From NCBI RefSeq assembly GCF_024345415.1, contig NZ_JAGQBB010000004.1, positions 1 through 64,000 of the forward strand: a stretch of DNA of 64,000 nt, in the 5' to 3' direction. This DNA is from Synechococcus sp. Tobar12-5m-g (GTDB lineage Bacteria > Cyanobacteriota > Cyanobacteriia > PCC-6307 > Cyanobiaceae). The translations under genes were made by a program, and so were the position numbers. Positions 21 to 53,637 of this stretch are shown piece after piece (the stretch's first letter is position 1; each line of letters opens with the position of its first letter). Under the pieces are notes generated by a model. That model saw only the letters and a program-made list of their open reading frames with translations. It made no database searches and had not been told where the DNA came from.

Positions 21-431
21 TCAGCCTTGACGGCCTCGCTGTATGGACGCATTGGTCGGTTCCATCAGGCCCCCTGGTGATTGGAATGGTCGGGATGGAG
101 AGGCTTCATCTTTCCTGGCAGAGGGGGGTCGCAGATCCGCTGGCAAGCTGCCGATGCGTCGACGGACGAGCGGCATCGCCAGGGTGGTCATGCGGCTCAG
201 CCGGCAGCGGGACGACATCTTCAGACGGCTCTGACTGAATTGTGGGTGGTCTGCTGGGATATCAAGCTCATCGCTGCTGGCTGCCCCCGCAACCTTTGAG
301 CTGATGAAAGCCAGGAGAACGTCCTGATGCCGCTCGCTCAGGCCGATCACCATCGCCGGGCGTGGCTTGACGTTGGGCCCATCGGTAAACGGGAAGGCCA
401 CCAGGACGATGTCAAAGCGAGCCAGCATCAA
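21..431 (-). CDS. MazF/PemK-type toxin (mRNA interferase family)
   Basis: The 136-residue protein begins with the family pattern FDIVLVAFPFTDG...KPRPAMVI, then LLAFISSK and DHPQFSQSRLKMSS. This is the usual fold of type II toxins that cleave mRNA. The N-terminal 95 residues look normal. After about residue 98 the protein becomes Ser/Pro/Arg-rich and unlike the family, so a late frameshift or read-out into non-coding sequence is possible. Its first codon overlaps the stop of the upstream antitoxin-like gene by 4 nt (ATGA), as expected for a co-translated pair. The toxin assignment comes from the pattern; activity is inferred. Confidence 0.75.
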   Translation of the reverse strand: MMLARFDIVLVAFPFTDGPNVKPRPAMVIGLSERHQDVLLAFISSKVAGAASSDELDIPADHPQFSQSRLKMSSRCRLSRMTTLAMPLVRRRIGSLPADLRPPSARKDEASPSRPFQSPGGLMEPTNASIQRGRQG

Positions 432-646
432 GCGGCCACGATCGTTTCGCCGTCCGTGAAGCTGTAGAGATCAGGTTCCTGGGCAAGGTCATCGAAGGCC
501 TGACCCGCCAGGGCCATTTCGGCCAGCTCGTGGTCGCTGAGCTCGCCTGAATCCTGGCCTAACTGCTCCAGCAGCCAGCGTCGATCAGCATCGGGCAGGC
601 TGCGGATGACCTCCAGGAGGTTCCTGGTGAGTTGTGGATTGGTCAT
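428..646 (-). CDS. Putative antitoxin partner of the MazF-like toxin
   Basis: A small acidic protein of 72 residues encoded directly upstream of the MazF-like toxin, with a 4-nt overlap. It has a helical N-terminal half (LLEVIRSLPDADRRWLLEQL) and an acidic tail (DLYSFTDGETIVAA), like short antitoxins that lack an obvious MazE swapped-hairpin motif. The family cannot be named from sequence alone; the role is inferred from position, size and charge. Only 36 nt separate it from the end of vapC, so this pair may be read through from the vapBC promoter. Confidence 0.65.
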   Translation of the reverse strand: MTNPQLTRNLLEVIRSLPDADRRWLLEQLGQDSGELSDHELAEMALAGQAFDDLAQEPDLYSFTDGETIVAA

Positions 647-682
647 GGTCTGAGGTTATCGCCGCCGAGCGGGGCGGCAGCC

Positions 683-1072
683 TCAGGCAGCCTCCAGCCC
701 AAGGTGTTCCACGTAGGGCAGGAAGTCCCGGTCGCTGAACAGCAGTGGCAGGTTCGCCTCGATGCAGGCGGTGGCGATGATCCCGTCGACCGTCTTGGCC
801 GGCGTGATGCCGCGGCGGCGCAGCTCCCGGTAACTTTCCGCCGCTTTCCAGGCATTGCGTGCCCCCAGCATCGGCAGGAGCGCCAGGGAGCGGAACAGCT
901 GGCGAGCTGTGGCCACGTCCTTCTCCTGTCGGAAGCCCTGCACCACCTCCACCAGGATCAGATCGCCGATTGCGATCGGCGTGACACCGAGCAGGCCATC
1001 GAAGCGCTCCACCTCTGGCGAGCTGAACCCATTGAAAAAGTCGATCCAGACCGAGGAGTCGACAACGATCAC
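683..1072 (-). CDS. vapC: PIN-domain ribonuclease toxin VapC
   Basis: A 129-residue PIN-domain protein. The acidic metal-binding residues are visible: D5 in VVDSSVWIDFF, E42 in LILVEVVQGF, D96 in TVDGIIATACIE and D114/D116 in LLFSDRDF. VapC toxins are Mg-dependent ribonucleases, often against tRNA or rRNA. The start overlaps the vapB stop by 4 nt. The length is normal for the family and all catalytic residues are present, so the toxin is probably intact. Confidence 0.88.
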   Translation of the reverse strand: MIVVDSSVWIDFFNGFSSPEVERFDGLLGVTPIAIGDLILVEVVQGFRQEKDVATARQLFRSLALLPMLGARNAWKAAESYRELRRRGITPAKTVDGIIATACIEANLPLLFSDRDFLPYVEHLGLEAA

Positions 1073-1302
1073 GACAGATCCTGGTCTCCTGGTTCCTCAG
1101 GCTCCGGATCGGCGTCGAGGCGTTTGGCCTCCAGGTCACCCTCCCAGCGGAGCTGGCCGCGGAAGGAGCGGATTTCCCCCTGCTGATGCAGCCGCACCAG
1201 GGTGCGCAGCCCCAGCTCCACCGCCTCTCGCTTGCTGCGGGCACCGGAGGCCTGCATCGCCTGCCGCATCAGGGCGTCGTCGATGACGATGTTGGTGCGC
1301 AT
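1069..1302 (-). CDS. vapB: VapB-type antitoxin
   Basis: The start at 1302 gives a 77-residue protein beginning MRTNIVIDDALM, the classic ribbon-helix-helix start of VapB antitoxins (MRTNIVIDD, then SKREAVELGLRTLV). A longer reading from 1365 would add 21 residues that run through the predicted operator, so it is rejected. The C-terminal half (about residues 45-77) is acidic and should bind VapC. It overlaps vapC by 4 nt. An inverted repeat 36 nt upstream is the probable autoregulation site. Confidence 0.88.
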   Translation of the reverse strand: MRTNIVIDDALMRQAMQASGARSKREAVELGLRTLVRLHQQGEIRSFRGQLRWEGDLEAKRLDADPEPEEPGDQDLS

Positions 1303-1337
1303 GGGCGGTTCGCACGGAGGGCCCGTGACGGTTGCCG

Positions 1338-1367
1338 ATGTGTATAGCCTAGTCAGTTCATACACAT
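1338..1367 (-). promoter_or_regulatory. Perfect inverted repeat, likely VapBC operator
   Basis: The arms ATGTGTAT (1338-1345) and ATACACAT (1360-1367) are exact reverse complements, separated by 14 nt, and lie just upstream of vapB. On the minus strand the downstream arm contains a -10-like TATACA. VapBC complexes typically bind such dyads and repress their own promoter. The same region lies between vapB and the divergent collagen-like gene. Confidence 0.6.
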
Positions 1368-4639: not shown

Positions 4640-6886
4640 TCAACGCTCAGCCTTCTCCAGCACCGTTCCACGTCGGCCCATCGCGCCTGCGGCCCCCCGC
4701 CGTTGGGGCACCCGCTGTTTCTTGATTTCCCTTCTCCTGGGGTACGCCGCCAGGGCGGACTGGAGCCAGTGCCGGTGCTCTCGTTGCAGAGACAGCGGCG
4801 ACTCAATCCGCACCCCGCCGCCGAGGGCATACAGCCAGCGGCGCAGGTCCTGGTCACGCTCGAGGGTCCAGAGCGGCAGGTCGATCTCCACCGGGTAGGG
4901 GTGGCTGGAGCGGCTGCAGGGCAGCAGCTCTGCCTGCTCGCCCAGCGCGCTGATCACCCCATCACCAGGCAGGGGTCGCGACAGGCGCACCGCCGCCGCC
5001 GGGAAGCGCCGCACCTCCTCACGCAGCAGGGCAAAGGCGGTGGCATCACAGCTCAGCTGCAAGGTGCCCATGGCCTTGCTGCGCTGCTCCGATGGCGTCC
5101 CGCAAACTGCTTGCTGCGCCTGGATGGCATCACCGAACTCAAGGCTGCCGCAGCAGTGCTGCAAGGTTTCGCCACGCCGCAGCGCCGCCGCATGGGACGG
5201 CTGGCTGCGGCAACTGCCGATTTCGATCCGGCGCAGCCCCAGCTGATCGATTCGCCGGCAGGCCAGCAACCCCTCCGTCTGGCCGATGTGGTCATGCTCA
5301 AACAGCAGATACCAGGCGCTGGTGTGGAAGATCAGCTGCAAGGGCCATCCACGGATCTCTTCCACACCGGCGTGGGAGGCGGCCAAGGTGGTGAACACCA
5401 CCCTCTGATGCTGCTGAATGGCGCCGCGCAGCTGCTCGGCCTGCTCGGTATTGAGCAGGGTGCCGCTCCTTCGCTGATCTCCCGCCAGCAGGGAACGGTT
5501 GAAGTAGGCCCGCACCGGCGGCACGGCCTCTATGACGATGCCGCTGCGTTGCAACCGCCTGCCCAGCTCCCTGGCGATGGCCTGTCCGCTGGGATCACCG
5601 AGCCGATCGGCATTGGCCTGCAGCAGCCCGTGGATTTCCACCTGCAGCGGCAAGGGCAGCAGCGAGGCGCCGAGGGCATAGCCATGGCGGCCACTGCCTG
5701 CCGCATCACGAAAGCCATAGGGCGTGAGGATCGCGGTGATGCTCTGGTGCAACTGGCGGGGAGTCCAGCAGTGACGGCCGCCGCTGAGCGTCTTGAGCCG
5801 AGCGGCGAGGTGATGGTCGATCGCCACCCCCTCCTGTCGATCAAAGGGGTGGTGAAGGATGTGGCGCAGCAGGGTGAGCGCACGGCAAAAGGTCTCGCGA
5901 TCGCCGAGCGCAGACCAGCCGCCCGCGGTGAGCGGTTGCGTCGCCGGCCAGGGCGGCGGCTCCACCGCCCGCATCGGCCCTGGCTTTGCCTGCTCGCAGC
6001 GGCCTGGCCAGGCGGCGGTGAACCCCTGCTGCCGCAACCAGTTCAGGTCGGCGGCGATCGCGCCCACATCCGCATAGCAAGGCCCGTGCAGCTGGCTGAG
6101 CTGGGCTGCTGCCCGCTCGGCCAGTCCCGCAGACTCCTCGGGGGAGGCCTGGACGTTGGTGGCGGTCAGTTCCGGCTGACGGCTGAGCAGCTGGATCAGG
6201 TGGAGCAGCCGCTCGCACTCCAGCAGGCGCGAATAGGCATGGGGGATCAGCCGGGCGTCCCGGTTGCGGGCGGCGCTGATCCGCCGCTCCAGCTTTGCCA
6301 GCACTGCCTGTAGGTGTGGCTCCAGCGGCTCATGGTGATGGGGTTCGACGCAGACCACCGCCGCGAAACCTTCCGAGCGGCTGGGCGAGAAGGCGGCCTG
6401 GGCCAGCAGGGAGACGTGGTTGTCGATCACCTGCTCGGGGATGCTGTGATCACGGTGTTGGTTCCACTGCTGGCAGAGCTCACGCGGTGTGCTCAGCCAC
6501 CAGCCGATCCACTCCACCGGCACCGGCAGCTCCAGCTTCTGGGTGATCGCCAGCCGCCAGGCCCGGCGCGAGAAGGTGGCTTCCACGATCACCGGGGCGC
6601 CTGAGCTGACAGCCTCCTGGATGCGCTGGTGCATCACCGCGGCGATGTCATCCCATGGGCCAAAGACGCCGCGATCACCAAAGATTTCGGCGCGAATGTC
6701 GCGGCTGCTGATGTAACAGGGGGGAGGCTCCTCAGTGCCGCTCAGCAGCGCGGCCAGGTGGCGGGCGAGCGTGGACTTACCGCTGGCCGGTGGGCCGATC
6801 AGCAGGTGGCAGCGGAGTGGGCGTTGCGGCGTCGCCGAGCAGCTGCTGAGTTGCTCGGCCGTCGTCGATGGAATGAAGCGAGTCAT
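4640..6886 (-). CDS. P-loop kinase / WYL-domain fusion protein
   Basis: A 748-residue protein from the ATG at 6886; an ATG at 6955 would add 23 residues, and neither has a clear ribosome-binding site. An N-terminal P-loop (CHLLIGPPASGKST, about residues 28-41), then DIRAEIFGD and VIVEATFSRR, resembles zeta-toxin-like or polynucleotide-kinase-like kinases. A helical middle of about 350 residues follows, then a WYL-type domain near residue 520 (AWYLLFEHD ... ACRRIDQLGLRRI). WYL domains bind ligands, often in defence or SOS regulators. Here the fusion has a kinase instead of the usual DNA-binding domain. It sits beside the phage-tail-like cassette. Substrate and function are unknown. Confidence 0.75.
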   Translation of the reverse strand: MTRFIPSTTAEQLSSCSATPQRPLRCHLLIGPPASGKSTLARHLAALLSGTEEPPPCYISSRDIRAEIFGDRGVFGPWDDIAAVMHQRIQEAVSSGAPVIVEATFSRRAWRLAITQKLELPVPVEWIGWWLSTPRELCQQWNQHRDHSIPEQVIDNHVSLLAQAAFSPSRSEGFAAVVCVEPHHHEPLEPHLQAVLAKLERRISAARNRDARLIPHAYSRLLECERLLHLIQLLSRQPELTATNVQASPEESAGLAERAAAQLSQLHGPCYADVGAIAADLNWLRQQGFTAAWPGRCEQAKPGPMRAVEPPPWPATQPLTAGGWSALGDRETFCRALTLLRHILHHPFDRQEGVAIDHHLAARLKTLSGGRHCWTPRQLHQSITAILTPYGFRDAAGSGRHGYALGASLLPLPLQVEIHGLLQANADRLGDPSGQAIARELGRRLQRSGIVIEAVPPVRAYFNRSLLAGDQRRSGTLLNTEQAEQLRGAIQQHQRVVFTTLAASHAGVEEIRGWPLQLIFHTSAWYLLFEHDHIGQTEGLLACRRIDQLGLRRIEIGSCRSQPSHAAALRRGETLQHCCGSLEFGDAIQAQQAVCGTPSEQRSKAMGTLQLSCDATAFALLREEVRRFPAAAVRLSRPLPGDGVISALGEQAELLPCSRSSHPYPVEIDLPLWTLERDQDLRRWLYALGGGVRIESPLSLQREHRHWLQSALAAYPRRREIKKQRVPQRRGAAGAMGRRGTVLEKAER

Positions 6887-6983
6887 GGGCGTTGGAATAA
6901 AGGACACATCCCCAGCTCCATTGGGCAGCAAGTGGCGCTGCCATTCCTGCTGCATTCATCACGATTCGGTAGCGGTACTTGCC

Positions 6984-7712
6984 GTGCTGGTGGCGGTCAG
7001 TACCAAAGGCCGATTACGGCCGTGGTGGCAGGAGCATTCCGCAACCCGCCGACCAGCGCGAAATCCGCTGCCTGCTCCGATTCCACCTCCTCTGCGCCCT
7101 GCCACCGGCCTGCGTGTGGCCTCTGGCCCGTTCCATCAGCACCTGCTCGACGACCTCGCCCCTCCGGGGCCGACTCCGCTGCTGTGGCGGAGCCTGAGCC
7201 AGTGGGGCGAGCTGCTGCGTGCTGGCGAGCTGGAGGCGGTGCTGCTGGCGAGCGTTGGCCCTGATCTGGAGGCACCACCTGCACCGGTCGAGGGGATGGA
7301 GTGGCTGCCCCTGGGCCGCTGGGGGTTGCTCCTCGCCTGCCGTTTGAACGGCCACGATTCCGCCGCCGCGCCGCCGCCCCGGACCTTCCGGTTCCTGGCA
7401 CCGCCGGTGGCGGCGGCACCGGCGCTCCATCACGCCCTGGAGGAGCAGCAGCTGGCGGCCATCACCCCGCTCGATGCGGTTGCTGCCACCGACTGGCTGG
7501 CGGCGTTGCAACGGGGTGATGGGCTGCTGCCGGTGCCGCCGTCGCTGCTGCAGACCAGCCCCTGGCGGGAGGCCTCACTGACGGCGGTGTGGCCATGGGA
7601 GCCGCTCGTGGAGCGTCTCTGGCTGCTGGTGCCCCCGGAGCTCGCCGGAAGTGCGGCCGTTCTGTCTCTGGCCGCCAGGCTGCGGGAGCGGATCGCAGCG
7701 GCTTCAAGATGA
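6984..7712 (+). CDS. LysR-like effector-domain protein without a DNA-binding domain (probable remnant)
   Basis: From about codon 42 (GLRVASGPFHQHLLDDL) the protein resembles the substrate-binding half of LysR-type regulators, with a matching C-terminal region (LTAVWPWEPLVERLWLLVPPELAG). No winged helix-turn-helix is present upstream in any frame; the frame upstream only shadows the kinase gene. There is no ATG, and the GTG at 6984 is a guess. It is either a truncated regulator or a gene of unknown type with Pro/Ala-rich sequence. The identification is tentative. Confidence 0.4.
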   Translation: MLVAVSTKGRLRPWWQEHSATRRPARNPLPAPIPPPLRPATGLRVASGPFHQHLLDDLAPPGPTPLLWRSLSQWGELLRAGELEAVLLASVGPDLEAPPAPVEGMEWLPLGRWGLLLACRLNGHDSAAAPPPRTFRFLAPPVAAAPALHHALEEQQLAAITPLDAVAATDWLAALQRGDGLLPVPPSLLQTSPWREASLTAVWPWEPLVERLWLLVPPELAGSAAVLSLAARLRERIAAASR

Positions 7713-9647: not shown

Positions 9648-9968
9648 TCAGGGAATGAACAGTTCCTCGTAGCCGCCGCTTTCGATGGCAGCGACCGCTG
9701 CCTGAAGCTCGCCTGTGACCTGGCGAATCCGCGGCCAGCTGGTTGTTGTCAGCACCAGGATCGCGATGCTGCGCCCGCTCAGATTCTGCTGATAACGCAG
9801 GTTGGTATCGGTGGTGATCAGGAGCTCGTAGCCCTCCTGCTCCGCCAAGCGAATCAGTTCGCCATTGGTGACGGTCGACCAACCCAGCTCATAAGCCGTG
9901 GCAATCACATGGCCGGTCAATGAACGGCGAAGAGGAACGGGTGTCCCCTGGTCAAACAGGATCCGCAC
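9648..9968 (-). CDS. DUF5615-type PIN-like toxin
   Basis: A 106-residue protein starting MRILFDQGTPVPLRRSL and containing LLITTDTNLRYQQNLSGRSIAILVL. This is the pattern of DUF5615 (Mut7-C-like PIN fold) proteins, with conserved Asp residues D6 and D54. Such proteins pair with DUF433 proteins in a type II toxin-antitoxin arrangement. It starts with GTG immediately after the antitoxin stop (TGA then GTG), so the pair is probably translationally coupled. Toxicity is inferred. Confidence 0.78.
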   Translation of the reverse strand: MRILFDQGTPVPLRRSLTGHVIATAYELGWSTVTNGELIRLAEQEGYELLITTDTNLRYQQNLSGRSIAILVLTTTSWPRIRQVTGELQAAVAAIESGGYEELFIP

Positions 9969-10211
9969 TCAAGCCAGTGCGGCAGCTGCGGTGCTCCGAG
10001 CAGCGTGCTCCAGGACCAGCCGGGACTGCTCAAGGCTTACCCCTGGGAACAGTTCGACGAATTCAGCCAAGGAGACGCCGTCTTCCAGGTTTTCAAACAG
10101 AGCCGCCACTGGAATCCGGGTACCGCGGAACACCCAGGCGCCGCTCACGCGCTGAGGATCACGCTCCACAGCACTGCAGCCTGCCCAGCCCAGATCGGTT
10201 TGCGTGGTCAT
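9969..10211 (-). CDS. DUF433-type antitoxin
   Basis: From the ATG at 10211 the gene encodes 80 residues with the DUF433 core RVSGAWVFRGTRIPVAALFENLEDG and SLAEFVELFPGVSLEQSRLVLEHA. This core is a helix-turn-helix-like fold. The longer open frame to 10475 shadows the rad52-like gene. Directly upstream of the DUF5615 toxin, it is the likely DNA-binding antitoxin and autoregulator. Confidence 0.8.
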   Translation of the reverse strand: MTTQTDLGWAGCSAVERDPQRVSGAWVFRGTRIPVAALFENLEDGVSLAEFVELFPGVSLEQSRLVLEHAARSTAAAALA

Positions 10212-10281
10212 GGCCCTCAGGGCGGCCGGACTCATGAATGGTAGGCAGCACCTCCTACCTGAGCTGCCGGATGACTGGATC

Positions 10282-11223
10282 TCAGGCAACGGTCTGGTGC
10301 TGCACCAGGAAGGCCTCGATCCAGTCGTGGTGTTGCTTCTGGGTAATGCGATTCGCGATGGAGGTGGCCTCCTCCGGGACTTGAAACCGCTTGCGGAAGG
10401 CCTTGGTGAATCCCTCCAGCTGGGGCTGGGGAAGGCTGCGGATGGTGGCGTGAATCCGCCGGATCGTGGTGCCATCGAGGGGCAGCAAGGCCGGATCTTC
10501 TTGGGCCTCCTGGATACCGTCAGCCGCTGCAGCGTCGGAGTACTGGCCTACGGGTGGGTGGATGCTGGGGCGGTGACCGTTGCCAGCCGGTGAGCGCCGC
10601 AGTGAGCCGTTTCCGGCAGCGGCATTGGCTGTTATCCCGTTTGGGGAGTGGGGCGGTATGTCGCCCCGAGAGGTGTGCTCGGTGATGCCCCCCCGTGAGG
10701 GGACCCCCGAGACGCTTGAGGTGACCTCTCGCTGCTGCTTGTCGTACAACGCCAGCCCGAACGGGTTCCCGAAGGTCATCAACGCCCGCTTCATGGCGTC
10801 GGTCTCGGCTTCCTTGAGGGCGGATTCATGGGCCTGGCCCAGGTCGACGTCGATGCCGTGGCCGGCGCCGCTGCCTTCCCGCACGATCCCGCCGACGATC
10901 ACCCGCACCCGGGCGGTGTAGGTGACGCCCCAGCCGTCACGTTGCGGTGGATCGGAGGGCTTACTTGGCTCACGGCCGATGCGGCGTTCCGCCTGGGAGA
11001 CGCACTGCAACGCGACCGTCTCCCGCTGCCAGCCGTCGAACCCAAAGATCCGGTTGGCCTCGGCGATTGCCACCCAGCCCTCGATGTAGCTGACCTTGCC
11101 TCGGCCCTGGTCGCGCTGCTTGACGTTGGCGCGACTCAAGGGTGCCGCAAGTGCAGCGACCTGCTCGGCGGTGAGGGCGGACGCCTGAGCGAAAGAGCGG
11201 TCGATGGTCGTTGTCGTGGTCAT
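10282..11223 (-). CDS. Rad52/Rad22-family single-strand annealing protein
   Basis: The 313-residue protein has the Rad52 signature block. It includes ANVKQRDQGRGKVSYIEGWVA (about residues 33-53), NRIFGFDGWQRETVAL, a beta-strand YTARVRVIVGGIVREGSGAGHG, and AHESALKEAETDAMKRALMTFGNPFG. The core ends near residue 165. A Gly/Pro-rich linker and a C-terminal helical segment follow (about 240-313). Proteins of this family anneal complementary single strands and are common in phages. It is the distal gene of a minus-strand run with Gp157-like and SLOG proteins. Confidence 0.88.
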   Translation of the reverse strand: MTTTTTIDRSFAQASALTAEQVAALAAPLSRANVKQRDQGRGKVSYIEGWVAIAEANRIFGFDGWQRETVALQCVSQAERRIGREPSKPSDPPQRDGWGVTYTARVRVIVGGIVREGSGAGHGIDVDLGQAHESALKEAETDAMKRALMTFGNPFGLALYDKQQREVTSSVSGVPSRGGITEHTSRGDIPPHSPNGITANAAAGNGSLRRSPAGNGHRPSIHPPVGQYSDAAAADGIQEAQEDPALLPLDGTTIRRIHATIRSLPQPQLEGFTKAFRKRFQVPEEATSIANRITQKQHHDWIEAFLVQHQTVA

Positions 11224-11259
11224 GGCATTAAGGGGCAGGGTGGGAACAAGCGATGGGAG

Positions 11260-11472
11260 TCAGCTGGCGGGGCTGCCGGCGGGCACGGACTCGATCAGCA
11301 CCCAGCAGGGCGGATCGCTGCAGTGGATGTGATCGGGCGAAGGCCGTCGGCCCGGCTGGCGGGTGATGGGCACCACCCAGCTGCTCAGCCGTGTGGACCA
11401 GATGTGGCCCCTGGGCCGTGGGCTGGTGGGTGTGGTGTTGGCGGTTGTGCTGCCGTAGGTGGAGAGATCCAT
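11260..11472 (-). CDS. Small hypothetical protein between Rad52-like and Gp157-like genes
   Basis: A 70-residue frame starting MDLSTYGSTTANTTPTSPRP, then HIWSTRLSSWVVPITRQPG and ending in a segment with two Cys (HCSDPPCWVLIESVPAG). The ATG at 11472 avoids overlap with the upstream gene. Position in the co-oriented run supports it being real, but no family is recognised and it could be non-coding. Confidence 0.45.
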   Translation of the reverse strand: MDLSTYGSTTANTTPTSPRPRGHIWSTRLSSWVVPITRQPGRRPSPDHIHCSDPPCWVLIESVPAGSPAS

Positions 11473-11582
11473 GGCTTCTGGTGGTGGGTGGAGGTGATGG
11501 CCTGGCTGGTGATGGCGCTGACGAAATTCCCTGGGCCCGCCCCTGCAGCGGACCCCTATCGAGGGGGCCTCTGGCCCCCCGC

Positions 11583-12215
11583 TCAGTGGATGCGCCAGTT
11601 GCGGTGGGAGAGGAGCTGGGCTCCCGGGATTTGCTGGCCGGCCTTGAGGGCCTGCTTGATGGCGGCCTTGTCGGGCTGGCTGGTGGTCTTGACCGTCAGC
11701 CACTCGGGAGCCAGGGCCTGCTCGTCGTCGATCTCGACGGTCTGGGATCTGCGGCTTGTGAGCTCGTGATTGGGGAAGCTGAACCGGGTGGCCTGCGGCT
11801 GCAGCCGGGTGAGCACCAGCACGAGGGACTCCTCCAGGGCATCGGCCCGACTGGAATCGCCACTGGCCAGGGCGGTGAGGCGTTTGGCCTGCTGCTGGCG
11901 GTAGGCGGCCTGGCCGCGCAGGTGCTCGATGACCCAGCAGGTGGCATCGGCCTTGGCCGCCAGGGCCGCCTTGTTGCCCTCCTCGGCCAGCAGGGCGGCC
12001 TCCAACTCAGCGAGGGCCTGACTGCGGGAGTCGTCGTCATCGGCCTCCAGCTGCTCGGCCAGCTGGCCGATGGCGGTGGTGAGCTCCTGGGCCTCGATGC
12101 CCAGCTGCCAGAGCGAACCCGAGCGCTGGAGAGAGCAGGCCGGGCCAGCGGCCTCTGGAGCAGACACCGCAAGGGCAGTGGCGTAAGCGGCAGGGATGGG
12201 GGTGAGAACGGACAT
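11583..12215 (-). CDS. Siphovirus Gp157-like protein
   Basis: The start at 12215 gives 210 residues. The N-terminal two thirds are acidic and helical with coiled-coil character (ELTTAIGQLAEQLEADDDDSRSQALAELEAALLAEE). The C-terminal part (QALAPEWLTVKTTSQPDKAAIKQALKAGQ, then GAQLLSHRNWRIH) matches my memory of the Gp157 family of phage and prophage genes. Those proteins usually sit next to annealing proteins, as here. The role in the phage replication/recombination module is not established. Confidence 0.75.
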   Translation of the reverse strand: MSVLTPIPAAYATALAVSAPEAAGPACSLQRSGSLWQLGIEAQELTTAIGQLAEQLEADDDDSRSQALAELEAALLAEEGNKAALAAKADATCWVIEHLRGQAAYRQQQAKRLTALASGDSSRADALEESLVLVLTRLQPQATRFSFPNHELTSRRSQTVEIDDEQALAPEWLTVKTTSQPDKAAIKQALKAGQQIPGAQLLSHRNWRIH

Positions 12216-12265
12216 GACGGTGAGAAGGCGATGGGAAACGGAGGGGCCCACAGGCGCGGAAGGCT

Positions 12266-12763
12266 TCAGGGGCAAGAAGCAGCAGCGGGATCGGCCCAGC
12301 GAGCGGCGGATGGGCTGACCTCCATCACGGCGATCGGCACCGGGGAACGGGAGGCCATGCGGCGGGCTTCGCTCACCAGCGAGGCCGTGCCGGACCCACC
12401 GGGGAAGGCCACCACCAGCACGGAGGTGGAGACACCAGGGGAGGTGTGGGCCTCGGCCCTGGCCACGGCCAGCTCGAGCAGCTTCCGGTTGCGGATCGGC
12501 CCGGCGGCCCGGCCATGGCGCCGCCATTCGGCGGGCATGACCAGCGCCGACCAGCCCAGCTGATGGGCGGCTCGGGCAATGGCGGCATCGGCACCGCGGG
12601 CCCCGCCGTGGAGCAGCAAATGGACCAGCCGGCCGCCGCTGCGGGCCAGCAGCTCAGCGGCAACGCGCTGATGGGGCCAGTCCAGATCACGGCCGCCGCC
12701 GGCCGCGATCACAAGGGAGCGACCGGGGCCCACTTCGGGCCTGGATGACATACAAAGAGCCAT
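12266..12763 (-). CDS. SLOG-superfamily (DUF2493-like) nucleotide-binding protein
   Basis: Starting at the ATG at 12763 this encodes 165 residues; ATG 12751 and TTG 12787 are alternatives. It has the glycine-rich start IAAGGGRDLDW, then LLLHGGARGADAAIARAAHQLGW, PAEWRRHGRAAGPIRNRKLLE and VVAFPGGSGTASLVSEA. This is the Rossmann-like pattern of DUF2493/YspA-type SLOG proteins. They are thought to bind nucleotides or nucleotide-derived signals and are frequent in phages and defence loci. It is the first gene of the rad52-like run, 50 nt before the Gp157-like gene. Confidence 0.82.
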   Translation of the reverse strand: MALCMSSRPEVGPGRSLVIAAGGGRDLDWPHQRVAAELLARSGGRLVHLLLHGGARGADAAIARAAHQLGWSALVMPAEWRRHGRAAGPIRNRKLLELAVARAEAHTSPGVSTSVLVVAFPGGSGTASLVSEARRMASRSPVPIAVMEVSPSAARWADPAAASCP

Positions 12764-12892
12764 GGAATCAGTTGCCGTGGATGACAACTGATCGGGGCAT
12801 CAAGGCCGCTCAGACATATGCGGCGTTGATGGCGAGATCAGGGGATGACGTTGCCGCAGGCGATGGGCTCGGGGCCTTTGGCGCGACCCTTA

Positions 12893-13508: not shown

Positions 13509-13519
13509 GCTATCACTGA

Positions 13520-13593
13520 TCGGGGCGACAGGATTCGAACCTGCGACCTAGTGCTCCCAAAGCACCCGCGCTACCAAGCTGCGCCACGCCCCG
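13520..13593 (-). tRNA. tRNA-Pro (anticodon UGG)
   Basis: The minus strand folds as a standard cloverleaf of 74 nt. The acceptor stem is CGGGGCG/CGCCCCG with discriminator A, the D-arm is GCGCAGCTTGGTAGCGC, and the anticodon stem-loop is GGTGC-TTTGGGA-GCACT with anticodon TGG. The T-arm contains GGTTCGAATCC. The CCA end is not encoded. Genes on its 3' side (lower coordinates) are accessory and those on its 5' side are core, consistent with use as an island integration site. Confidence 0.95.
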
Positions 13594-13667
13594 AATGGAT
13601 GACTCTACCTGTACCCCCAGTCATCCCAGGAGATCGGATCAGAAGGTCAGAACCCTTCATGCCTGAC

Positions 13668-51764: not shown

Positions 51765-52817
51765 TCAGAGAACGACGCCGGCCAAGGAGAGGATCCCGGC
51801 GGGATCAAGGCCCAGGGGCTTGAACCCATGGCGGCCGGAGGCTGCGCCGATCTGCTCCATCGTCTGGGTGGTGATTCGGTTTCGACCCCAGCTGAAATTC
51901 GTGTGCCAACCCTCGAACTCCAACAGGATCGCCTCGGCGAAGCAGGCAAACATCTGTCGCTTCGGGTTCTCCATATCGGCCACCTCCAACATCTGCCAAT
52001 CGATGTCGGTGAAGAACTCAACAATGCCCCCCTTCAGCACATGAATTCCCTGGGCATTCACCTTCGAGTCAAGATTCTTTGGATAGCCTCCGTCAATCAT
52101 CAGGCAGGGGGTTTTGAGCGTCCGCCAATCAATCTCCAGGGACTGGGGAAGACTGGCCACCCACACGACCACGTCGGCTTCGGGAAGGGCCTCCTCCAGA
52201 GCAAGAATCCGACCAGAACCGAGGGCCGTCTGCAGATCGAGCAGGCGCTGCTGGTGGCGGGCCACCAGCAGCAATTCGCCAACGCCGGTCTTGTTCTGCA
52301 ACCACCGGCAGACGGCGCTGCCGATGTCGCCGGTGGCACCGACCACCGCAACCTTGGCCCTGGCCAGATCGATGCCCAGCAGCGGGGCATTGACTTCCAG
52401 CTGACGGCAGATCACCCAGGCGGTGTGGGTGTTGCCGGTGGTGAACCGCTCCCAATCCAGGGTGGTTGAGCGAATCTGCTGAACCTTGGCCAGATCGAAG
52501 TTCTCGAAAATGATCGAGGTGAAGCCACCCAGGGCCGTGATGGCCAGGCCCTGTTTCTGGGCCAGCTCCATGGCGTTCAGCACCTTGCGCGTGGCCGTCT
52601 TGAAGCGGGACAACATCTCTGGGACGAAACAGGAATCGATGTAAGCGCCCTCGATGGTCGTCCCAGACGGGCTCGTGAGAGAGAGCCTTTCGAGAAGCTG
52701 GGGGGGTGCGCTGCACCACATGTCGAGATCACCTTCGGCGTAGTCGTCGTATCCCAGGTTTCGCGCCTTCTGCCGGGCCTCCTCGAAGTTGCTGGAATGT
52801 CCGATCAAACCAAACAT
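51765..52817 (-). CDS. aar: Long-chain acyl-ACP reductase
   Basis: The 350-residue enzyme starts [23 protein letters not shown] and has the Rossmann motif [38 protein letters not shown] and a C-terminal [22 protein letters not shown] are also present. It reduces fatty acyl-ACP to fatty aldehyde with NADPH. It is the partner of ado upstream, forming the cyanobacterial alkane pathway. Confidence 0.95.
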
Positions 52818-52904
52818 GGGAGCTGAACCTTTCGAGGCGAACGGACGTCCGCGGACCACTTGGTAGCGCAGAATACCTGTTCACGCCGACTCCCCGTTGC
52901 TGAG

Positions 52905-52926
52905 GGCTAGGAGAAATTGCCTAGCC
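52905..52926 (-). promoter_or_regulatory. Stem-loop at the end of ado
   Basis: GGCTAGG (52905-52911) and CCTAGCC (52920-52926) pair perfectly around an 8-nt loop, and the stem includes the ado stop codon. No T-run follows on the minus strand. It could partly terminate or stabilise the ado transcript before aar. Confidence 0.5.
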
Positions 52927-53637
52927 GACCAACGCCGCTGCTGCCATGCGGGCAATCTCCCTGCTGGTGAAACCGATCTCGGCAAGGGCTTCCTGGTAAG
53001 CGATCAGGAAATCCTCGATCAGCCCTTCCTTCTCCATCTTGAGAACGGCGGCATCGCCGGCAACCTGATCGAGCATCTGACGCACCAGGGGGAGGTTCTG
53101 GCGGTTGGCGATTTCCAGCTCGTTGCGGCTGGTCTCGAGGTTGGCCTTCAGCCATTCCTGGCCGTAGTTCAGGTGGGTGTACTCATCCTGGACCACCCCT
53201 TCGGTGATCTTGCGGGCAAACGGATCAGCAACGGGGATGTAGATGTGATAAGCCGCGATGGCGAAGGCTTCGATCAACAGGGCCTGAATCAGCAGGCAGG
53301 TCACCACCTTGCCTTCAGCCAGAGCCACCTGAAAATTGCCGTGGAGCGGGGAGAAGAAGTCCTTGGCGAAAGGCATGTCTGCAACGACATCCAGGTTCCT
53401 GGCGCAGGCCTGGAAGCCCTTCATGTGCTTCAGCTCCATCCGCGCCAGACGGGCGAGCTCCTCGGCTTGGTCGGGAATCAGGGTTCCCAGGGAGATGTAG
53501 TTGTCATGGGCTTCCTGTTCACCCTCGATCACGATCGCGTTGATGCGGCTGTAGGCATCCTTGTAGGCTGGAGTGGTGAAATCCGGCAGGGCTTCGCGAA
53601 GGGCCGAGGTGCTTTCCGCAACGGGCATGGCAGCCAA
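52921..53637 (-). CDS. ado: Aldehyde-deformylating oxygenase
   Basis: A 238-residue ferritin-like diiron enzyme. The ligands are present: E40, E68 and H71 (MELKHMKGF), E123 ([12 protein letters not shown]), E152 and H155 (DEYTHLNYG). It converts fatty aldehyde plus oxygen to an alkane one carbon shorter and formate. It precedes aar by about 100 nt, the standard cyanobacterial order. Confidence 0.96.

What the first reader, a model, noticed from the sequence alone, without database searches (positions are those of the whole stretch)
4640..6886. Fusion of a zeta-toxin-like P-loop kinase with a WYL domain
WYL domains are usually attached to helix-turn-helix regulators or to effectors in phage defence. 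Here the partner is a kinase-like P-loop domain, with a long unassigned helical region between. Located in a mobile island next to phage genes and toxins, it could be a ligand-gated defence kinase.
Basis: partly seen in the sequence, partly recalled or inferred. Interest (0 to 1): 0.7.

Follow-up and report, generated by a model that had tools for sequence, protein, structure and literature searches.

The report
Polynucleotide-kinase-fused WYL defence regulator
This cyanobacterial gene fuses an RNA/DNA-end kinase domain to a complete WYL-type gene switch; its relatives repeatedly sit beside bacterial immune systems (type III CRISPR, DISARM), but the copy in this window has lost a key catalytic residue of the kinase and has no recognisable immune system next to it.

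Summary
The fusion is real: one ORF, window 4640-6955 (-), 771 aa. The N-terminal P-loop domain is not zeta-toxin-like. Its nearest solved relative, by profile and by predicted fold, is the Clostridium thermocellum polynucleotide 5'-kinase. The "unassigned helical region" plus the C-terminus match the WYL transcription factor DriD (wHTH, three-helix bundle, WYL, WCX). So it is polynucleotide kinase + complete WYL regulator. The architecture is common in cyanobacteria, often multi-copy; no viral copy of the fusion was found. Outside picocyanobacteria, 23 of 44 fusion loci lie within 9 kb of type III CRISPR genes, against 2 of 35 for stand-alone kinases and 13 of 23 for stand-alone WYL relatives. 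Freshwater picocyanobacterial copies sit head-to-head with a LysR-type regulator, in 8 loci at the head of a class-1 DISARM operon. The best reading is a nucleic-acid-sensing regulator of defence operons. The window copy is a derived branch: the catalytic Asp became Arg, two more active-site residues changed, the LysR partner lost its DNA-binding domain, and no CRISPR or DISARM is nearby; yet dN/dS is 0.13-0.22. "Ligand-gated defence kinase" is therefore doubtful for this copy. No operator was found; activity, ligand and regulation are untested.

The parts
4640..6955 (-). Fused gene, 771 aa: polynucleotide-kinase-like domain + wHTH/three-helix bundle + WYL + WCX (possible alternative start at 6886)
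   Evidence: homologues; dN/dS 0.13-0.22
6341..6826 (-). P-loop polynucleotide-kinase-like domain (residues 44-205)
   Evidence: AAA_33; PHROG 505 'polynucleotide kinase'; C. thermocellum Pnkp kinase 4gp6 by profile E 5e-10 and by fold E 1.4e-8, TM 0.73 on the target
6701..6703 (-). Codon of residue 85: Arg in place of the catalytic Asp (Asp38 of C. thermocellum Pnkp) that 54 of 58 family members keep
5900..6340 (-). Helical connector (residues 206-352), partly low confidence; residues 278-313 may be an additional HTH-like unit (inference)
   Evidence: AF2 secondary structure and pLDDT
5468..5899 (-). Predicted winged-HTH and three-helix-bundle region of a WYL regulator (residues 353-496); wing 418-434 low confidence
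   Evidence: DriD aligned over about 400 columns, more than WYL+WCX alone can fill; stand-alone homologues of about 390-460 aa align from about here
5207..5467 (-). WYL domain, five-stranded barrel (residues 497-583); W548-Y549-L550 and invariant R568, R583
4736..5206 (-). C-terminal WCX (WYL C-terminal extension) region (residues 584-740)
   Evidence: Pfam WCX (E 0.019 here; 3.8e-6 in homologue L041); fold
7110..7706 (+). Remnant of the divergent LysR-type partner: effector-binding half only; the HTH half is missing (ORF called at 6735-7712)
   Evidence: matches partner residues about 90-280; no convincing HTH match in the window; partner family is LysR-type by profile and fold; intact partner beside relatives

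Best explanation
The gene belongs to a cyanobacterial family of transcription regulators in which a DriD/PafB-like WYL protein (wHTH, three-helix bundle, WYL ligand domain, WCX dimerisation domain) carries an N-terminal polynucleotide-kinase domain. Proposed working: the kinase domain docks an NTP and a nucleic-acid 5' end, the WYL domain binds single-stranded nucleic acid or a nucleotide ligand, and the joint occupancy switches DNA binding at the divergent promoter of the neighbouring defence operon (type III CRISPR, class-1 DISARM, or a reverse-transcriptase locus), often together with a LysR-type co-regulator in picocyanobacteria. Shown: architecture, predicted fold, family-wide catalytic residues, gene neighbourhoods, and loss of the catalytic Asp in the window branch. 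Inferred: regulation of the neighbour, nature of the ligand, kinase activity in the main family. The window copy is a derived branch, most likely kinase-dead, which keeps the P-loop and the regulator half under purifying selection; what it now controls is unknown.
For: Fold and profile matches to C. thermocellum Pnkp at the N-terminus and to DriD/PafBC at the C-terminus. Type III genes within 9 kb of 23 of 44 non-picocyanobacterial fusion loci versus 2 of 35 stand-alone kinases (Fisher P 6e-6), in at least nine genome families. The fusion is divergent from cas10 in Leptolyngbya, Euhalothece, Cyanobacterium aponinum and others, and at the end of the cas10-cmr run in PCC 7002 pAQ6 and PCC 7003. 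LysR partner divergent and adjacent in 54 cases. Partner followed by DrmD (8 loci at over 900 bits, 7 more with related SNF2 helicases), DrmMI in 6 of them; 5 adjacent DrmD-fusion pairs among 18 genomes with both, about 0.14 expected. Stand-alone WYL homologues have the same CRISPR neighbourhood (13 of 23), so the association travels with the regulator half. Published WYL regulators work this way: DriD and PafBC are activated by ssDNA (PMC12340889, PMC11804915), and BrxR-type regulators control defence loci (PMC9122601, PMC9122589).
Against: No shared operator palindrome was found in the divergent intergenic regions. The model has pTM 0.54 and the wing of the wHTH is below pLDDT 50. About half of the loci have no recognised defence genes nearby, including the window. 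An effector or repair role is not excluded: methyltransferase and AlkB genes follow the fusion on pAQ5, pAQ6 and the PCC 7003 plasmid. Neighbourhood counts are not corrected for shared ancestry.
Confidence: 0.68

Rival explanations
1. Ligand-gated effector kinase: WYL senses an infection signal and unleashes the kinase to phosphorylate RNA, DNA or nucleotides, causing dormancy.
For: Catalytic Asp conserved in 54 of 58 family members; defence neighbourhoods; a kinase-like domain fused to the ring nuclease Csx3 is common in cyanobacterial type III-B loci (PMC7371418).
Against: The C-terminal half looks like a full transcription factor, not only a sensor. The window branch lost the catalytic Asp yet remains under purifying selection. 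The CRISPR link is as strong for WYL homologues without any kinase.
Confidence: 0.12
2. RNA/DNA-end repair enzyme with built-in regulation: the kinase heals 5'-OH ends left by type III RNases or ribotoxins, and the WYL half induces the repair genes.
For: Closest relatives are end-healing kinases, including the Pnkp1 of an RNA repair complex; methyltransferase and AlkB genes follow the fusion on pAQ5, pAQ6 and the PCC 7003 plasmid, and AlkB lies near the stand-alone kinase of pSYSA.
Against: No phosphatase or ligase was seen next to it in the annotated regions read; the methyltransferase is a weak generic hit, not Hen1; the window copy's catalytic site is altered.
Confidence: 0.12
3. The window copy is a decaying relic without function.
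For: Catalytic Asp lost, partner truncated; a second copy in the same genome is broken (G000:C1:47225-48668) and one close orthologue is frameshifted (L033).
Against: Intact ORF in five of the six members of the branch, the window included, and dN/dS 0.13-0.22 in all parts.
Confidence: 0.08

Closest known systems
DriD / PafBC (ssDNA-activated WYL transcription activators)
   Same: Predicted wHTH, three-helix bundle, WYL and WCX in the same order over about 400 aligned columns
   Different: Extra N-terminal kinase domain and helical connector; linked to defence operons rather than to a DNA-damage regulon; ligand unknown
BrxR/CapW-type WYL regulators of defence systems (PMC9122601, PMC9122589)
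   Same: WYL regulator encoded beside diverse defence systems
   Different: Those are wHTH-WYL proteins; no kinase and no DISARM is mentioned in PMC9122601, and the systems here are type III CRISPR and DISARM
Bacterial polynucleotide kinases (C. thermocellum Pnkp kinase domain, Pnkp1)
   Same: P-loop fold, Walker A, Asp-x-x-Arg and lid-Arg motifs across the family
   Different: No phosphatase or ligase domain; fused to a regulator; the window branch lacks the catalytic Asp
Csx3-kinase fusion (Csx3') of cyanobacterial type III-B loci (PMC7371418)
   Same: Kinase/transferase-like domain fused to another domain, beside type III-B in cyanobacteria
   Different: There the partner is a ring nuclease, not a WYL regulator; whether the two kinase domains are close was not compared beyond a weak PADLOC Csx3-AAA hit (E 0.026)
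WYL-enzyme fusions listed by Makarova et al. 2014 (PMC4012209)
   Same: WYL fused to an enzymatic domain
   Different: The main text lists Cas3, exoRNase, Mrr-like, HNH, helicase, AbiGII-like, BRCT and TerB, no kinase; its supplement was not readable here

Membership tests
Zeta toxin | Zeta_toxin sequence family and an epsilon-type antitoxin alongside | tested here: not met
   No Zeta_toxin among Pfam hits up to E 1; neighbour is a LysR remnant
Polynucleotide kinase (CthPnkp type) | P-loop kinase fold closest to Pnkp | tested here: met
Polynucleotide kinase (CthPnkp type) | Catalytic Asp and full set of lid Arg residues | tested here: not met
   Window branch has Arg at the Asp position, Glu for Asp125 and His for Arg170 (Arg168 kept); 54 of 58 family members keep the Asp
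Polynucleotide kinase (CthPnkp type) | 5'-OH kinase activity | not testable with these tools
   Needs protein
WYL transcription regulator (DriD/PafBC kind) | WYL plus WCX | tested here: met
   PADLOC WYL E 6e-11; fold; Pfam alone is below cut-off
WYL transcription regulator (DriD/PafBC kind) | wHTH and three-helix bundle before WYL | tested here: met
   Foldseek to full-length DriD over about 400 columns; by predicted model only, wing of low confidence
WYL transcription regulator (DriD/PafBC kind) | Binds promoter DNA and a single-stranded nucleic acid ligand | not testable with these tools
   No shared operator palindrome found
Defence-system WYL regulator (BrxR/CapW kind) | Encoded beside a defence system | tested here: inconclusive
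   Met for the family, not met for the window copy: G000 has no DrmD match and no CRISPR genes were seen among its neighbours
LysR-type regulator (partner) | LysR HTH plus effector-binding domain | tested here: not met
   Met for the partner family; the window copy lacks the HTH half

The most novel reading that the evidence does not exclude
The family is an RNA-end-sensing transcription factor: the kinase domain captures and phosphorylates 5'-OH oligonucleotides made during infection (type III target cleavage products or linearised oligoadenylates) and the WYL half reads the product to switch the neighbouring CRISPR or DISARM operon; the window branch has become a pseudokinase sensor.
Probability: 0.22. 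Interest if true: 0.85.

Novelty: new variant of a known kind. Interest (0 to 1): 0.55.

Why it matters
How type III CRISPR and DISARM operons are switched on is largely open. This family puts a nucleic-acid-end enzyme and a nucleic-acid-sensing regulator in one polypeptide beside those operons, including on plasmid pAQ6 of the laboratory strain Picosynechococcus PCC 7002, so the link between RNA/DNA ends and immune gene expression can be tested directly. The branch in this window that lost the catalytic Asp is a natural control.

Tried and rejected
Zeta toxin (no profile support). Viral origin of the fusion: none in IMG/VR at the sensitivity used, and phage records give only stand-alone kinases of Bacillus phages. 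Shared inverted-repeat operators in fusion/cas10 and fusion/LysR intergenic regions: nothing consistently beyond shuffles. Single origin of the fusion: the kinase tree mixes fusions and stand-alone kinases with weak deep support, so not decided. A shifted catalytic Asp (residue 86) as substitute: it is Glu or Gly in two orthologues, so not conserved. NCBIfam gave no usable family. My first reading of the about 1,100-aa neighbour as a type I restriction subunit was wrong: it is DrmD of DISARM.

Full report
WHAT IS THERE. The ORF at 4640-6955 (-) encodes 771 aa. Pfam sees AAA_33 at residues 50-178 (E 3e-16) and only weak WYL and WCX hits; PADLOC's WYL model is clear over 504-735 (E 6e-11). An alignment of 58 full-length homologues gave an AlphaFold2 model with mean pLDDT 74.6 and pTM 0.54, so domains are usable but their arrangement is not. 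Foldseek against the PDB ranks the C. thermocellum polynucleotide kinase first (4gp6, E 1.4e-8, TM 0.73 on the target) and then full-length DriD and PafBC over about 400 columns. The sequence profile independently ranks the same kinase first (E 5e-10), followed by seryl-tRNA(Sec) kinase and Pnkp1, and PHROGs calls it polynucleotide kinase. Hence the protein is a polynucleotide-kinase-like domain, a helical connector, and a complete WYL regulator.

WHERE IT OCCURS. In 201 genomes of the window's family, 52 carry a relative, many in several copies and some broken. In 291 genomes of the class, 188 match at least one half, and about 30 places carry a near full-length fusion. All full-length plasmid hits are cyanobacterial. 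The viral collections hold no fusion at the sensitivity used.

NEIGHBOURHOODS. On plasmids the gene lies next to type III-B modules: divergent from cas10 in Leptolyngbya BL0902, Euhalothece and Cyanobacterium aponinum, and after the cas10-cmr run in PCC 7002 pAQ6, PCC 7003 and Nostoc UHCC 0870. With one uniform search, 23 of 44 distinct fusion loci, nearly all outside the picocyanobacteria, have type III genes within 9 kb, against 2 of 35 stand-alone kinase loci (Fisher P 6e-6) and 13 of 23 stand-alone WYL loci. The count is a lower bound because many contigs are short; it is not corrected for ancestry, but at least nine genome families contribute. The Cas10s checked mostly keep GGDD, so oligoadenylate signalling is possible there. 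Three fusions sit behind a reverse-transcriptase gene. In freshwater picocyanobacteria a divergent gene adjoins the fusion in 54 cases; the best PDB hits of its profile are LysR-type HTHs and its model (pLDDT 86.8) matches full-length LysR-type regulators (all 50 hits listed). In 8 loci this LysR gene is followed on the same strand by DrmD of class-1 DISARM, and in 6 of these DrmMI is seen as well; 7 further loci hold more distant SNF2 helicases. Independently, 5 of 18 genomes with both genes have them adjacent, where about 0.14 pairs are expected.

THE WINDOW COPY. It belongs to a tight branch (window, L122/L030, L031, L032, L033, L034); the members put in the tree are one clade (100/100) nested in the picocyanobacterial fusions on a long stem. 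In this branch the Asp that aligns with Asp38 of C. thermocellum Pnkp is Arg, Asp125 is Glu and Arg170 is His, while Walker A, Arg88 and Arg168 remain; the other 54 aligned homologues keep the Asp. That this Asp is catalytic rests on established knowledge of the Pnkp family and on a product-complex crystal sequence in which it is Asn. dN/dS is nevertheless 0.13-0.22 in all parts, so the protein is maintained. Its LysR partner retains only the effector half. G000 has no DrmD match, and the annotated neighbours are toxin-antitoxin genes, a collagen-type tail fibre gene, Rad52 and a Gam-like protein.

MECHANISM. DriD and PafBC are WYL activators triggered by single-stranded DNA (PMC12340889, PMC11804915); the WYL1 protein of type VI-D CRISPR binds ssRNA (PMC6547453). 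By analogy the kinase-WYL proteins probably read nucleic-acid ends or fragments and switch the neighbouring defence promoter. Regulation, ligand and kinase activity are inference; the anatomy, catalytic residues and neighbourhoods are shown by computation.

NOVELTY. The published main-text list of WYL fusions has no kinase (PMC4012209), and the annotated records name the gene only as a WYL, AAA, ATP-binding or hypothetical protein. A recent type III survey set WYL proteins aside (PMC11229360). Supplements and subscription papers could not be read, so priority is not proven. I rate it a new variant of a known kind.

Noticed in passing
window 21-1365 (-): PemK/MazF-like toxin gene (21-431) with a small ORF upstream, and a VapBC-type PIN toxin/antitoxin pair (683-1365).
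   Followed up: partly
window 9648-10475 (-): DUF5615 PIN-like protein next to a DUF433 protein, a common toxin-antitoxin-like pair.
   Followed up: partly
window 10282-12787 (-): Rad52-like annealase, Sipho_Gp157/Mu Gam-like protein and a YspA/SLOG protein: a phage-type recombination set near tRNA-Pro (13518-13594), parts of it kept in several relatives.
   Followed up: partly
L134 6981-11055 and L181 6997-11037: Reverse-transcriptase gene, a gene of unknown function (no Pfam hit, tested on L134) and the kinase-WYL fusion in a row on cyanobacterial plasmids; possibly an undescribed RT defence locus.
   Followed up: no
L133 11144-12668, L134 11139-12663, L178 11144-12668, L135 8986-10657: Methyltransferase and AlkB dioxygenase genes directly follow the fusion on PCC 7002 and PCC 7003 plasmids; AlkB also lies near the stand-alone kinase on pSYSA.
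   Followed up: no
window 51765-53637 (-): Two adjacent genes that read like the cyanobacterial alkane pathway (acyl-ACP reductase and aldehyde-deformylating oxygenase), recognised from the translations only, in the stretch of lower G+C.
   Followed up: no
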